From Treponema sp. (GTDB lineage Bacteria; Spirochaetota; Spirochaetia; Treponematales; Treponemataceae), in NCBI GenBank assembly GCA_017619795.1, contig JAFZRP010000011.1, forward strand, positions 62,001-126,000: a stretch of 64,000 bases of DNA, read 5' to 3'. Under the pieces are notes generated by a model. It made no database searches. It was not told the origin of the DNA and was given only the letters and a program-made list of their open reading frames with translations. Position 1 is the first letter of the stretch, and each line of letters opens with the position of its first letter. The translations under genes were made by a program, and so were the position numbers. Below are positions 58,591 through 64,000 of the stretch, piece by piece.

Positions 58591-61500
58591 TTATTTTTCC
58601 CAAAGCTTCATCTTCATTTTAATTAACTCAGTACACTGGTTGTTTATTTCAATCATTCCCATTTTGATGATGTTCTCACGCATTTCTTCCCAGTTTGCAT
58701 CAAAATCTTTTTCAGGCGCAACTATCATCTTTATAAGCCTGTCTTTTACATATTCATCAACTTCACTAATTACCTTTGTCATTTGTGATGAAAGCGGATA
58801 CTGCCAGACCTGGCCATGCTTTGAAACTCCAAGCTCCTGCGAAGTTGGGAAAAGCTCTGTCCAAAGCTCTGCTCCGTAAGCGGATAAGGTTTCTTTTTCC
58901 GCAGAAGAATAGTTTTCAATTATGTTTTCTTTGTACAACTTTGCCAGAGGATTTCCTGTTGAATCTATAAATCCGCCACCGGCTTCCGGGAAAGGATAAA
59001 TATATCTTCCTACCCCATCATTTTCATCAATATTCTGGTAAGAGATTCTTCGTCCATTTTTATCGTAATAGTAATGCTTTCCTTCAATTCCCCAGTTCAC
59101 TAAAATCTGAGCTTCTTCAGAACACATCCAGTCAAGAAACTTAAAGGCTCTTACAGGATCCTTGCAATCCTTAGAAATTGCAATTCCCCAGCCGCCGGAA
59201 TAACCGTAATCTTTTAAGGCCGGATCCTTATAATTTTCATCATAAGAAACTGGAAGAAAAGCAAAAGTCCTTTGCTCCAGATCATTCTGTACAAGATACC
59301 TGTTTATATCTTTTAAGCCCCAATAAGGATAACTTGTTCCAAGCACATACCCATCCATAAGCTTTGAGTTCCATACATCTATATCCTGGGTAAAGCTTTC
59401 CGGATCAAGAAGTCCTTCATGATAAATCTTATTAAGCCACTTATAAAACAATTTCATTTCCGGGTACAGGAACTTATAGGTTGCTTCCATTGTTTCCTGG
59501 TCTACAATCCACTGTCCGTCATCAGGATAACCTATAACATAATTTCCGGGATTTGAAAGCCCCAGATACCAGTACCAGCTGTCTGTAATAAGCGAAATAC
59601 CAATTGTTTTATGTCCGTTTATTTCCGGATACTTTTTGATATATGCCAACAGAATATTTTCGTAATCTTCCAGAGTTTTAATTCGCGGATAGCCAAACTC
59701 TTTTAGTACAGCATTCTGAATCGGCATGTTACCGGAAACTTCCATAATTTTATTTTTAATTTCATAAGTGCCTACTGAATAAATATATGGATTATCGAGA
59801 GTGTACCTTAAACGGGAAAGCTGGTCGCCATAAAGCTTTTTCATATTCTGACCATATTTTTCTATGTAATCATCAAGCTTAAGCACTGCATTCTGTTCAA
59901 TAAGTTTTGTAAGGTTTCCTTTTGCATAAATAAAATCCTGATAGTTTGCGTTAGCAATCATAAGGTTTATTGCGTCATCAGGATTTTCTGTAGAATACTC
60001 AAACTTTAGCGTCACCCCAGTTTTTTTTGTAATTTCCTTTGCGATCATATCGTTGAAATACTGAGGCTTTGATAAATCAGATGAGAAAAATGTAAAAGTT
60101 ATAGGTTCTGCAACAGACTCCTGTGCCTTTTTACTGCATGAAATAAAAACACAGACAAGCATAAAAAGCATAAGGATTAGTGATTTTTTTCCGGAACCTT
60201 CTGTGTTTTCTGAGTCCTTTGAGTTTCTGCTTTTAAACTCTTTAGGAGTCATTCCTGTACTCTTTTTGAACTTCATAAAAAAGTAATCGGTATTTGTGTA
60301 GCCTACAAGCTTTGAAATCTGATAAATCTTTAAGTCAGTATTTAAAAGCTTGTTTTTAGCATCTTCAATTCTCAGGTTATCAATATATGTATTAAACTGC
60401 TCGCCAGTGTATTTTTTAAACCTTTTCCCTAAGTAAGCACTGTTACAGTTGAACATTTGCCCAAGAGCTTCCAGTTTCAAATCCTGGGTATAATTTGCTT
60501 TTACGTAGGCAATTACTTTTACAATTACAGAATCAGCGGTATTGAAATTAAAGTTTTCAATAAAGTCATCAAGTATATTTGTAAAATATTCAAACATACT
60601 TTCAAAAGTTTTCTTTTCAAGAATATTTGGAACAACATCAAAGGTTGAACCGTCAGCTATATCTCTCTGTGGATATTTTGAAGTAATTCTGTTCCTTAGC
60701 TCAAGAATACAGTAAATAAGATTTTTCTTTGTTTCTGCTTCAGAAAGAAGCGGCTTAAAAAAGGTCTCGTATAATTCTTTCTTTGTTTCCTCAAGCTTTT
60801 TTTTGTCATAAGTTTCAATGCAGAAAATTAAATCTTCAATATATTTATTGATAGTTTGCTTAAAATCCTTGTTACCAGCTTCTTCCAAAAGCTTTTCATT
60901 TTGTTCTGCAAGCTCCGGACTTATGCATTTTTCTTTATCAAAGTAAAATAAAAACTTTTTATTATCCGTTGCTTCGTTGTAAGATTTAACAAGACCATCC
61001 AGTCCCATGTAATTATTTCCACAGGTTATGAAAGTTCTTGCTTCATGAAGTGATGTAATTCTTTCGATACAATTCTGGACACCTTTTGTGTTTGAAGTTT
61101 TCAGAATCAGCAAGATATTTTCATTTTGCTCTATAATTACTTTTGTAAAAAAAGAAAAATAATTTTGTATTACCTTATTAAGTTCTTTTTTATATTCTGA
61201 TTGATAATAATCAAGATTAAAAATAATTGCCTGATAAAAGGATTTTTCCGAATCCTCAAAAAAAACAGAATCAGTTGGATTTTTCATTTCCGAAAATGCT
61301 TCTGTCCGGATCAGTTTTAAGAGATAATCTTTAGTTTCAAGCTCCTTAGCATTTTTTGAGTTTTCTTTAAGATTATTCTGTTCGTTAATTTCTTTAGCAA
61401 TATTCCTTACGTTTTTTTCAAGTTCATCTTCATCTACAGGTTTTAGAAGATAAGCTTTAGCACCATAATTAAGCGCATCCTTAGCAAACTCAAACTCAGA

Positions 61501-61770
61501 AAAACCTGTAAGAATAATAAAGGCAGGAATTGTCAGATTGTTTTTTGTAAAATATTCACTTACTTGTTTTATAACATCAATTCCGCTCATACCCGGCATT
61601 TTTATATCAAGCATTACAAGATGAGGACGCAAATCAATAATCTGGCTGACAGCATCTTTTCCGTTAGAAGCTTCTCCGCAAAGCATAAAGCCGCAGTCTT
61701 TCCAGTCAATTATGCATTTTAATCCGTTGCGAATAATTTCTTCATCATCTGCAATAAAATAATTCAGCAT
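58591..61770 (-). CDS. Fusion: response regulator receiver + AraC HTH + membrane segment/lipobox + extracellular solute-binding protein
   Basis: 1059 residues in one frame. Receiver (1-120): acidic DDEE (8-11), phospho-Asp 55 in LVMLDIKMPG, FIILTGFSE and Lys in AYLLKPVDE. A YesN-type linker fills 130-410. The AraC pair of HTHs (about 415-514) has LKLEALGQMFNCNSAYLGKRFKKYTG and IYQISKLVGYTNTDYFFMKFKKSTGMTPKEFK. A hydrophobic segment (531-544) ends at Cys 545 (VFISC), like a lipoprotein signal. Residues 551-1059 are a LipO/YtcQ-type sugar-binding protein (SSDLSKPQYFNDMIAKEITKKTGVTL; GYSGGWGIAISKDCKDPVRAFKFLDWMCSEEAQIL). GGAGGCGG precedes the ATG. A cytoplasmic DNA-binding half joined to an exported receptor is highly unusual; signal detection in cis is inference. 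Confidence 0.88.
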   Translation of the reverse strand: MLNYFIADDEEIIRNGLKCIIDWKDCGFMLCGEASNGKDAVSQIIDLRPHLVMLDIKMPGMSGIDVIKQVSEYFTKNNLTIPAFIILTGFSEFEFAKDALNYGAKAYLLKPVDEDELEKNVRNIAKEINEQNNLKENSKNAKELETKDYLLKLIRTEAFSEMKNPTDSVFFEDSEKSFYQAIIFNLDYYQSEYKKELNKVIQNYFSFFTKVIIEQNENILLILKTSNTKGVQNCIERITSLHEARTFITCGNNYMGLDGLVKSYNEATDNKKFLFYFDKEKCISPELAEQNEKLLEEAGNKDFKQTINKYIEDLIFCIETYDKKKLEETKKELYETFFKPLLSEAETKKNLIYCILELRNRITSKYPQRDIADGSTFDVVPNILEKKTFESMFEYFTNILDDFIENFNFNTADSVIVKVIAYVKANYTQDLKLEALGQMFNCNSAYLGKRFKKYTGEQFNTYIDNLRIEDAKNKLLNTDLKIYQISKLVGYTNTDYFFMKFKKSTGMTPKEFKSRNSKDSENTEGSGKKSLILMLFMLVCVFISCSKKAQESVAEPITFTFFSSDLSKPQYFNDMIAKEITKKTGVTLKFEYSTENPDDAINLMIANANYQDFIYAKGNLTKLIEQNAVLKLDDYIEKYGQNMKKLYGDQLSRLRYTLDNPYIYSVGTYEIKNKIMEVSGNMPIQNAVLKEFGYPRIKTLEDYENILLAYIKKYPEINGHKTIGISLITDSWYWYLGLSNPGNYVIGYPDDGQWIVDQETMEATYKFLYPEMKLFYKWLNKIYHEGLLDPESFTQDIDVWNSKLMDGYVLGTSYPYWGLKDINRYLVQNDLEQRTFAFLPVSYDENYKDPALKDYGYSGGWGIAISKDCKDPVRAFKFLDWMCSEEAQILVNWGIEGKHYYYDKNGRRISYQNIDENDGVGRYIYPFPEAGGGFIDSTGNPLAKLYKENIIENYSSAEKETLSAYGAELWTELFPTSQELGVSKHGQVWQYPLSSQMTKVISEVDEYVKDRLIKMIVAPEKDFDANWEEMRENIIKMGMIEINNQCTELIKMKMKLWEK

Positions 61771-61799: not shown

Positions 61800-63608
61800 T
61801 TATAAAACCGGAATCCTTATACGAACTGAAGTACCTTCTCCAAGCTTACTGCTTATAGAAATACCGTATTCCTGACCATAAAATATTTTTATTCTTGATT
61901 GAACATTTATCAATCCTATTGAAGAAGAATATTCTTCTGGTTTACCGCAATTAAGCTTTTTATTTAAATCATCAAGCTTTTCTTCCGGAATACCACATCC
62001 ATTATCTTTAACTTCAATATTTAAAATATTCTGTCCATTTGCTTCATTAGTTTCCATATTTATGATGATATAAATAAAACCGCCCGAAACTTTATCTTCA
62101 AGGCCATGACTGAAGGAGTTTTCTACAATCGGCTGAATCAAAAACGGAAGGACATTTATGTTATTTATATCACACATAGTCATAACATCATATGACACAC
62201 GTTCTCCAAAACGCATATGCTGTATGGTAAGATAATTCTGAACTGCATTTAATTCGTCAATAAGAGGACCAGGCTGTCCCTTTACAGAAAGATTGTATCT
62301 TAGTAATGAAGCCAGAAGCTTGAGCATAAGGGCAACTTCTTTTTCTCCGGAAGCGATTACTTTCATTCTTATAGTTTCCAGAGTATTAAAAAGAAAGTGA
62401 GGATTTATCTGAGTAGAAAGCATTTTGAGGCTTATTTCATTCTGCCGTGCTGCCAGCTGTTCCTTTTCAAGATTCTGAACATAAAGCTTGTTGATTAAGT
62501 CTTTAAGGTTTACTGCCATTTCGTAAATTGATTCATAAATCTGCTCAAACTCATCTTTTCCGCCAATTGTAGGTTCAATTTCAAGATTATTATCTACAAC
62601 TTTTGTAATTCCAATCTGAACCTTACTAACACGTTTATCTATGTAGTTTGAGAAAATTGTAAGTACAAGGAAAGAAAAACTGATTAAGAGAAGAATAACA
62701 ACAATAAGAATCGCAAGGATTTTTAAGGTTACCTTGGTAAGCTCAAAAATTGGAATAATATAAATAATTGAAAAATAGATTGAAATTGTATTTTTGGGAA
62801 CAAACTTTTCGTGGAAGAGTCCTACCTTTTCGTTGTTTAATTTTATAGTTTGTATTTTCTTACTCGTTACAGGATTTTTTGTATATTCAATAAGTATTTT
62901 TTCATCTTCTTCTGCAAGATCTTCTATTGAGGTATACAAAATAGAATTATCGTAAGTAATTACAGTTTTATAAAAGAGGTTTGAAAGATTTTTTTCAATT
63001 ACATCAGGTGCAATATTTATAACAAGTACACCGCAGAATTGTCCGGTTGAAGTACTCCATATTGAACGGATTAAAGAAAGATATTTCTTTTTTGAAATGC
63101 TGTCTGTTTTATAAACCCAATAAGCCTGTCCGCTATATAATTTTGCATTCTGGTACCAGTCTTCTGCCATTATATTTTTATCAGCCTTAATTATAAACTG
63201 ATTGTCTAGCAAGGTTTGATTTTCTGTATAGATTCTGTAGCTTTCAACTTCATTGTAGGTCTGCAGGTAATTTTCAAAAAAGGTCATTGATGCGTAATCA
63301 GAATAAAGGTCCTGGATATCCTTATATTCTTTTAGCATTACAGCTTGAAGCTGCTTATTTACATAGATTCTGTCGGAAAGCTTTTTTATTTGACGCAGCG
63401 TATTATCAAAAACAAGTTCTGTCTGTTCAAGATTTTTCTGAATATCGCTCATTTCCTTTTTAAGCATTTCATCAAAAAGAAAAAAACAGCAGATTGAAGA
63501 AACAGTAATTACTGGAACAATAAAGAATAGAAGAAATAAAATGCGGATACTTTTTCTTATAGGAATATCATTCAGCTTATAAAAAAAATGATTATGCTTT
63601 CCCTTCAT
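61800..63608 (-). CDS. YesM-type sensor histidine kinase
   Basis: 602 residues. Membrane helix 1 (IRILFLLFFIVPVITVSSICCFFLF, about 22-46), an extracellular sensing region of about 240 residues with a dCache-like WYQNAKLYSGQAYWVYK stretch, helix 2 (LKILAILIVVILLLISFSFLVL), HAMP, and a His_kinase (LytS/YesM) core: QINPHFLFNTLETIRMKV with the phospho-His, LPFLIQPIVENSFSHGLE, and EVKDNGCGIPEEKL. A TATAAT lies 9 nt from the ATG with no ribosome site. It is directly upstream of the fused regulator (29 nt), the usual YesM-YesN pairing. The signal is probably an oligosaccharide. Confidence 0.92.
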   Translation of the reverse strand: MKGKHNHFFYKLNDIPIRKSIRILFLLFFIVPVITVSSICCFFLFDEMLKKEMSDIQKNLEQTELVFDNTLRQIKKLSDRIYVNKQLQAVMLKEYKDIQDLYSDYASMTFFENYLQTYNEVESYRIYTENQTLLDNQFIIKADKNIMAEDWYQNAKLYSGQAYWVYKTDSISKKKYLSLIRSIWSTSTGQFCGVLVINIAPDVIEKNLSNLFYKTVITYDNSILYTSIEDLAEEDEKILIEYTKNPVTSKKIQTIKLNNEKVGLFHEKFVPKNTISIYFSIIYIIPIFELTKVTLKILAILIVVILLLISFSFLVLTIFSNYIDKRVSKVQIGITKVVDNNLEIEPTIGGKDEFEQIYESIYEMAVNLKDLINKLYVQNLEKEQLAARQNEISLKMLSTQINPHFLFNTLETIRMKVIASGEKEVALMLKLLASLLRYNLSVKGQPGPLIDELNAVQNYLTIQHMRFGERVSYDVMTMCDINNINVLPFLIQPIVENSFSHGLEDKVSGGFIYIIINMETNEANGQNILNIEVKDNGCGIPEEKLDDLNKKLNCGKPEEYSSSIGLINVQSRIKIFYGQEYGISISSKLGEGTSVRIRIPVL

Positions 63609-63661: not shown

Positions 63662-64000
63662 TCAGCGTGGAGGATTAAGTTCTTTTCCACGTAAGCCAAA
63701 GGCTCTTTGTCTTTCCCTAACCTTTTGAACCTGTTCATTGTCTTTTTCAAGCAGGTCAATTAAGTCCCAGTGCCAGTCTAAGTTTGATGGAGGAAAAAGT
63801 GGCGGCGGATCAGGTTTTCTTCTTGAGTTTGCAGCCTTTACAATTTTCATAAGCGCTTCAAAATCATCTTTATCTGCAAGCTTTCTTAAATAACAGGAAT
63901 CCTTTTTAGCCATAACAGTTTTGTCAGCATTAAAGTAATAGTCAGCTTCATTAAAAACTGTATAACCTTGAGGATTTCTTATTCTTTTACTTCTTCCAGT
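63662..64000 (-). CDS. Partial hypothetical protein (5' end beyond window)
   Basis: The frame from the stop at 63662 is open to the right edge: an ATG at 63913 is preceded by 29 more sense codons (TGRSKRIRNPQGYTVFNEADYYFNAD...) and no Shine-Dalgarno, so the real start probably lies outside. The visible part is polar, with helix LADKDDFEALMKIVKAANSRRK, a Pro-rich PDPPPLFPPSNLDWHWDLIDLLEKD and a basic C-terminus. No family recognised. It is upstream of the kinase promoter and on the same strand. Confidence 0.5.
   Translation of the reverse strand, partial: TGRSKRIRNPQGYTVFNEADYYFNADKTVMAKKDSCYLRKLADKDDFEALMKIVKAANSRRKPDPPPLFPPSNLDWHWDLIDLLEKDNEQVQKVRERQRAFGLRGKELNPPR

What the first reader, a model, noticed from the sequence alone, without database searches (positions are those of the whole stretch)
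58591..61770. A single protein joins a response regulator and AraC DNA-binding domain to an exported sugar-binding lipoprotein
The frame runs 1059 codons without a stop: receiver with Asp 55, YesN-like linker, AraC domain ending near residue 514, a 14-residue hydrophobic segment, a lipobox-like Cys 545, and a full LipO-type solute-binding protein. The known YesM/YesN scheme has these as separate proteins on opposite sides of the membrane. The topology (N-in, C-out) is consistent: the DNA-binding half would be tethered at the inner membrane and the receptor half would face the periplasm. If signal peptidase II cuts before Cys 545, ligand-binding protein and regulator would be made in a fixed 1:1 ratio and the regulator released; if it does not, this is a membrane-bound transcription factor with a cis receptor, a one-polypeptide sugar sensor.
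Basis: partly seen in the sequence, partly recalled or inferred. Interest (0 to 1): 0.93.

Follow-up and report, generated by a model that had tools for sequence, protein, structure and literature searches.

The report
Regulator fused to sugar-sensing lipoprotein
In one Treponema genome and two relatives a single unbroken gene joins a response regulator to a predicted exported sugar-binding lipoprotein, where 21 of 37 related loci examined keep the two as neighbouring separate genes and none fuses them; the cell would likely cut the product in two at the membrane, making sensor and regulator from one message.

Summary
The 1059-codon frame is real (61770 to 58591, minus strand). Pfam finds receiver, AraC DNA-binding and solute-binding (SBP) domains in that order. 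A sequencing error is unlikely: two further protein clusters (P0001, 1068 aa; P0002, 1075 aa), about 90% identical, have the same architecture, with junction linkers differing by whole codons, and neither other frame at the junction offers an SBP start. None of 37 related loci is fused; 21 have the SBP gene directly after the regulator, always in another frame. The upstream gene is a sensor kinase with a predicted extracytoplasmic domain. The locus therefore looks like a CuaDSR-type three-component sugar sensor whose regulator and SBP have become one polypeptide. The junction keeps a lipoprotein-type signal (KK, 14 hydrophobic residues, Cys545) between two hypervariable stretches, so a cut by lipoprotein signal peptidase is my leading reading. 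Cleavage, ligand and partner binding are untested.

The parts
58591..61770 (-). Fusion gene: response regulator - AraC - internal lipoprotein-type signal - solute-binding protein, 1059 aa
   Evidence: ORF; Pfam; two other full-length clusters
61408..61758 (-). Receiver domain, residues 5-121, with D8, D9, D55, T88, K110
   Evidence: Response_reg 72 bits; these residues are invariant in the three fusions; their role as switch residues is recalled
60229..60459 (-). AraC-type DNA-binding domain, residues 438-514
   Evidence: HTH_18 64 bits
60184..60228 (-). Junction linker, residues 515-529; variable in sequence and length among the three fusions, always in frame
   Evidence: alignment A1; 512-529 under pLDDT 50 in the model
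60136..60189 (-). Internal lipoprotein-type signal, residues 528-545: KK, S, 14 hydrophobic residues to S544, Cys545 (codon 60136-60138)
   Evidence: the most hydrophobic stretch of the protein
58594..60135 (-). Solute-binding protein part after Cys545, residues 546-1059
   Evidence: SBP_bac_8/SBP_bac_1; PDB 9pmy E 9e-114; fold like FusA, 5gub and AlgQ2
61800..63608 (-). Partner sensor histidine kinase, 602 aa, predicted membrane helices near 23-45 and 297-320, extracytoplasmic part about 46-296
   Evidence: His_kinase and HATPase_c; hydrophobic runs; model and fold matches

Best explanation
A single Treponema gene encodes, without a stop, a response regulator with an AraC DNA-binding domain followed by a predicted lipoprotein signal and a predicted sugar-binding protein, and its product is likely cut by lipoprotein signal peptidase into the regulator and sensor halves of a three-component sugar sensor. 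Shown: the continuous frame, its presence in three diverged sequences, the separate adjacent genes in relatives, and the kinase gene just upstream. Inferred: the regulator half stays in the cytoplasm while the internal signal threads the sugar-binding half across the inner membrane; Lgt would lipidate Cys545 and LspA would cut before it. The lipid-anchored sugar-binding protein would then dock on the extracytoplasmic domain of the neighbouring kinase when it holds an oligosaccharide, and the kinase would phosphorylate Asp55 of the regulator. The regulator would keep the hydrophobic stub 531-544, so it would sit at the inner membrane beside the kinase unless a site-2 protease (one M50 gene is present) trims it free. 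The fusion probably arose by a frame-changing indel across an overlapping gene pair, which would fix sensor and regulator at 1:1 synthesis.
For: Frame and domains. Two more full-length fusions, each 90% identical over the alignment, linkers differing by whole codons. Among the three fusions 15 of 22 positions are identical at 527-548 (GKK, hydrophobic run, Cys545, KK), against 0 of 13 at 514-526 and 0 of 7 at 549-555: the signal is a conserved island. Related free SBPs carry the same kind of signal at their N-terminus, L052 with the same FIS-Cys. 21 of 37 related loci have the SBP gene directly after the regulator, in another frame in 21 of 21, with a possible start overlapping the regulator stop in at least 16 of 21 (the script listed only five starts a locus, and one search shows overlapping starts in L056, which looks like the same contig as L082, making 17). 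Two permease queries hit nothing in L050-L061, and the permease search of the own genome hit nothing on the window's contig C95. Locus L065 (L079) lacks the SBP and keeps only a 245-aa kinase core, as if SBP and kinase sensor form one unit. LspA, Lgt and an M50 protease are in the genome. CuaDSR of Ruminiclostridium cellulolyticum is a studied system of SBP, kinase and YesN/AraC regulator with a predicted lipoprotein SBP (PMC10384115; abstract, passages and Discussion seen).
Against: No experiment shows cleavage, and I know of no measured LspA substrate with a 530-residue cytoplasmic domain before its signal (recalled; the listing showed none). The 17-residue uncharged stretch could also be a short stable anchor. 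Residue -3 to the Cys is Phe, outside the strict lipobox as I recall it. Five loci with more than 2 kb of sequence downstream (L098, L100, L101, L103, L107; regulator 38-40% identical) have a full-length kinase and no SBP found, so the SBP is not obligatory in the wider family, and the joint loss in L065 is one case. Four of 37 loci have permease genes between regulator and SBP, so the SBP of the wider family can serve uptake. A 1:1 ratio is unusual for an SBP (recalled).
Confidence: 0.55

Rival explanations
1. The protein is not cut: it is a membrane-tethered response regulator with the sugar-binding protein as a permanent periplasmic domain, held beside the kinase by SBP-kinase contact, and it binds DNA from the membrane as CadC and ToxR do.
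For: One strong hydrophobic run, with KK before and after it; topology precedent CadC/ToxR (PMC7593790, passages only).
Against: The run is less hydrophobic (best 19-residue mean 2.07) than the kinase's two helices (3.35 and 2.71); Cys545 and the residues before it are kept in all three fusions while the flanks drift, which an anchor alone would not need.
Confidence: 0.25
2. The sugar-binding half serves uptake, feeding a permease encoded elsewhere, and the fusion only reflects a coupled operon; it is not a sensor.
For: Loci L090, L092, L093 and L094 have LplB- and MalG-type permease genes between regulator and SBP (L062 looks like the same contig as L093); the own genome has other permeases of this type, best 48% identical on C118.
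Against: No hit of two permease queries in L050-L061 and none on the window's contig; SBP gene directly after kinase and regulator genes in most of the 21 adjacent loci.
Confidence: 0.12
3. A second translation start inside the gene (Met499 or Met507) makes a separate sugar-binding lipoprotein besides the long protein.
For: In-frame ATG codons at 499 and 507; from 507 a 38-residue signal ahead of Cys545 would result.
Against: Ribosome-binding energy is -2.4 at 507 and 0 at 499, within the range of the other in-frame ATGs tested in the regulator part (0 to -3.3), against -9.5 at the regulator's own start and -4.8 or stronger at the best candidate SBP start in 11 of 14 relatives (L052, L055 and L064 are weak: 0, -3.2, -2.1).
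Confidence: 0.06
4. Sequencing or assembly error joining two normal genes.
For: The assembly is fragmented (123 contigs, 6.41% contamination), the junction holds a run of seven A, and one base less or more there would end the regulator at 530 or 546 residues.
Against: Two other clusters, of 25 and 3 member sequences, carry the full fusion; in both other frames a stop comes before any start codon, so an indel there would leave the SBP without a start.
Confidence: 0.02

Closest known systems
CuaDSR three-component system, Ruminiclostridium cellulolyticum (PMC10384115)
   Same: SBP with predicted lipoprotein signal, two-helix sensor kinase (627 aa) and YesN/AraC regulator (538 aa, D55) encoded together; the SBP senses while another SBP serves uptake
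   Different: Three separate proteins; mature SBP of 410 aa specific for cellobiose; here SBP and regulator are one polypeptide and the ligand is unknown
Geobacillus stearothermophilus sugar systems (GanS kinase 6swj/6swk, AraT regulator 6swb)
   Same: GanS gives the only solved-structure match by sequence for the kinase (6swj, E 1.3e-27; name); AraT is among the closest receivers
   Different: Separate proteins. PMC10384115 mentions a three-component carbohydrate system in that species; that GanS and AraT belong to such systems is recalled
RsiV anti-sigma factor of Bacillus subtilis (PMC6066255, abstract)
   Same: Membrane regulatory protein with an extracytoplasmic receptor part, in which signal peptidase makes the first cut after ligand binding
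   Different: Type I signal peptidase and lysozyme; anti-sigma factor, not a response regulator
CadC/ToxR membrane-bound transcription factors (PMC7593790, passages)
   Same: Cytoplasmic DNA-binding part and periplasmic part in one membrane protein
   Different: No receiver, lipobox, SBP domain or partner kinase (recalled)
Cytochrome b/c1 polyprotein (fbcH) of Bradyrhizobium (recalled; one search found no paper)
   Same: Two proteins from one precursor with an internal signal
   Different: Not a lipoprotein, not regulatory

Membership tests
SBP-kinase-YesN three-component sugar sensors (CuaDSR type) | Sensor kinase with two membrane helices, extracytoplasmic domain, His_kinase and HATPase_c | tested here: met
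   domains; hydrophobic runs; model (topology is a prediction)
SBP-kinase-YesN three-component sugar sensors (CuaDSR type) | YesN/AraC response regulator with phosphorylatable Asp | tested here: met
   D55 invariant in three fusions
SBP-kinase-YesN three-component sugar sensors (CuaDSR type) | SBP encoded beside kinase and regulator | tested here: met
   no permease hit on the window's contig
SBP-kinase-YesN three-component sugar sensors (CuaDSR type) | SBP is a separate polypeptide | tested here: not met
   fused in window, P0001, P0002; cleavage could restore it, untested
SBP-kinase-YesN three-component sugar sensors (CuaDSR type) | SBP binds the kinase's sensor domain and ligand changes output | not testable with these tools
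   only the joint loss in L065 points to it, one case
Lipoproteins processed by signal peptidase II | Basic residues, hydrophobic run, small residue then Cys | tested here: met
   GKK, hydrophobic run, S-C in all three fusions; -3 residue is Phe, outside the strict recalled lipobox
Lipoproteins processed by signal peptidase II | Signal at the N-terminus | tested here: not met
   signal is internal, from residue 528
Lipoproteins processed by signal peptidase II | Cleavage and lipidation | not testable with these tools
   genes for LspA and Lgt are present
Membrane-bound one-component regulators (CadC/ToxR) | DNA-binding part inside, one membrane segment, periplasmic part, uncut | tested here: inconclusive
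   layout predicted; whether it stays uncut is unknown
Hybrid two-component systems (kinase, receiver and AraC in one chain) | Kinase domain in the same polypeptide | tested here: not met
   no kinase domain in the fusion

The most novel reading that the evidence does not exclude
Sugar binding itself gates the cut: the ligand-bound SBP half, docked on the kinase, exposes Cys545 to lipoprotein signal peptidase, and an M50 protease then frees the regulator, so that lipoprotein maturation serves as the signalling step of a response regulator.
Probability: 0.08. Interest if true: 0.92.

Novelty: new variant of a known kind. Interest (0 to 1): 0.62.

Why it matters
It is a natural fusion of a transcription regulator with a predicted extracytoplasmic sugar receptor, present in three diverged sequences, with the separate-gene state visible in relatives. 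If it is cut by signal peptidase II, it would be a regulatory precursor matured by the lipoprotein pathway that fixes sensor and regulator at equal synthesis. If it is uncut, it is a membrane-tethered response regulator carrying a receptor domain. A western blot with tags at both ends would tell the two apart, and it makes the question whether LspA accepts an internal signal directly testable.

Tried and rejected
Assembly error: set aside because of two separate clusters and the absence of a start codon in the other frames. Internal translation start: unsupported by ribosome-binding energies; the kinase value printed there rests on a coordinate I did not verify and is not used. Stand-alone one-component sensor: not the lead because an intact kinase gene lies upstream.

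Fusion as a widespread architecture: three protein searches gave only P0001 and P0002 as fusions: 2 of 12 hits for residues 420-720, 2 of 49 for the SBP part, 2 of 12 for the regulator part, where only the 7993 candidates sharing most words were scored. They see only relatives that share short exact words and have 0.55 to 1.75 times the query's length. A search of 200 genomes of the genus with residues 361-760 gave one alignment over all 400 residues only in the own genome. One other row (G177) runs from query residue 142 without a stop, but regulator and SBP lie in different frames there (L091). That list was cut, as was the list of 59 relatives, so weaker rows were not seen.

Joint loss of SBP and kinase sensor as a rule: rejected, one case only. 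The script misread the minus-strand loci L042-L046 and L048; those rows are not used. The fusion model has very low confidence over 362-501, perhaps from the mixed fragment rows of A2 (31 rows: the three fusions, 11 of 15 regulators, 10 of 14 SBPs and 7 P proteins), so nothing is concluded there. Papers: none held all of SBP, response regulator, Treponema and YesN; none for 'membrane-bound response regulator'; one unrelated paper each; none for the fbcH polyprotein; some searches were used as listings apart from the papers named above. The library holds only open-licence papers, so absence there is weak.

Full report
What is there. The minus-strand frame from 61770 to 58591 is open for 1059 codons. 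Pfam places a receiver at 5-121, an AraC DNA-binding domain at 438-514 and a solute-binding protein at 567-888. The most hydrophobic stretch is 531-544, preceded by KKS and followed by Cys545. The gene starts 29 bases after a 602-aa sensor kinase gene (61800-63608). The genus is inferred from relatives: the named loci are Treponema or Spirochaetaceae records.

Is it an error? One base less or more in the run of seven A at the junction would end the regulator at 530 or 546 residues, but in neither other frame does a start codon precede the SBP before a stop. A protein search with residues 420-720 gave 12 hits, of which two are full-length fusions: P0001 (1068 aa, cluster of 25 sequences, source ncbi) and P0002 (1075 aa, 3 sequences, source lgn). 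Each is 90% identical to the window protein over the alignment. I cannot tell whether the 25 include a record of the window's own species. The junction linker is 4 and 10 residues longer in them, with no loss of frame. Trees of both halves put the three together with full support.

Conserved island. Between invariant K513 and P556 the three fusions share 0 of 13 residues at 514-526, 15 of 22 at 527-548 and 0 of 7 at 549-555. The kept part is what a lipoprotein signal needs.

Relatives. In 21 the SBP follows the regulator directly as its own gene, in another frame in 21 of 21 (13 in +1, 8 in +2). In at least 16 of 21 a possible start codon overlaps the regulator's stop. In 4, two permease genes lie between. 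In 2 the SBP is about 9 kb away. In 10 no SBP was found; 4 of these have under 500 bases of sequence downstream. None is fused. The trees place L050 and L052 nearest.

Same place in the genome. The window's neighbours recur wholly or in part around L050-L055, L064 and L065: a ThiI-like gene, a 347-aa protein, kinase, regulator, then CrtO-type, glycosyltransferase and acyltransferase genes and IleS. CrtO is from Pfam; the other neighbour names are my reading of the sequences. So the orthologous place has separate genes elsewhere. In L065 (L079) the SBP is missing and the kinase gene is reduced to a 245-aa kinase core without its membrane and sensor part. This joint loss suggests that SBP and kinase sensor act together, but it is one case, and five other loci with more than 2 kb downstream keep a full kinase without a detected SBP.

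What it works like. The sensor part of the kinase model resembles chemoreceptor and kinase sensor domains (8w7p, Tlp3, Mlp37, PctA), a fold I recall as dCache. The one sequence match in the PDB is GanS, and a close receiver is AraT. The SBP half matches PDB 9pmy at E 9e-114 and folds like FusA, the chondroitin-disaccharide-binding protein 5gub and AlgQ2, all oligosaccharide binders. In CuaDSR of R. cellulolyticum a sensing SBP binds the kinase and feeds a YesN/AraC regulator, while another SBP serves uptake (PMC10384115). The window cassette has the same three parts in two genes. No permease of the MalG type was found on the window's contig.

Fate of the fusion. LspA, Lgt and one M50 protease gene are in the genome. 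Cleavage before Cys545 is the most economical reading of the kept signal; the stub 531-544 would remain on the regulator. Signal peptidase making the first, ligand-dependent cut in a regulatory membrane protein has precedent in RsiV (PMC6066255, abstract; PMC7593790, passages), which is the model for my novel case. No call shows cleavage. Internal initiation is poorly supported.

Verdict.

Noticed in passing
L065:3697-4434 (same gene in L079): Orthologous kinase gene reduced to a 245-aa kinase core, with no SBP gene found beside the regulator; a natural loss of the sensing side while regulator and kinase core remain.
   Followed up: partly
L073 and L074 (own genome, C118 and C57 ends): A permease pair at the end of C118 and a truncated LipO-type SBP at the end of C57 may be one operon split by the assembly, near esterase- and glycosidase-like genes (names are my reading, no call).
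   Followed up: partly
   Followed up: no
window 63662-64000 (continues in L066 to 9206): 347-aa protein of unknown function upstream of the kinase, found at 39-46% identity in the orthologous loci; no Pfam hit for the 83-aa piece tested.
   Followed up: no
rows G009:C76 and G017:C14 (L014): SBP-type matches in unusually long open frames (729-830 aa) in other genomes of the genus; may be other extensions.
   Followed up: no
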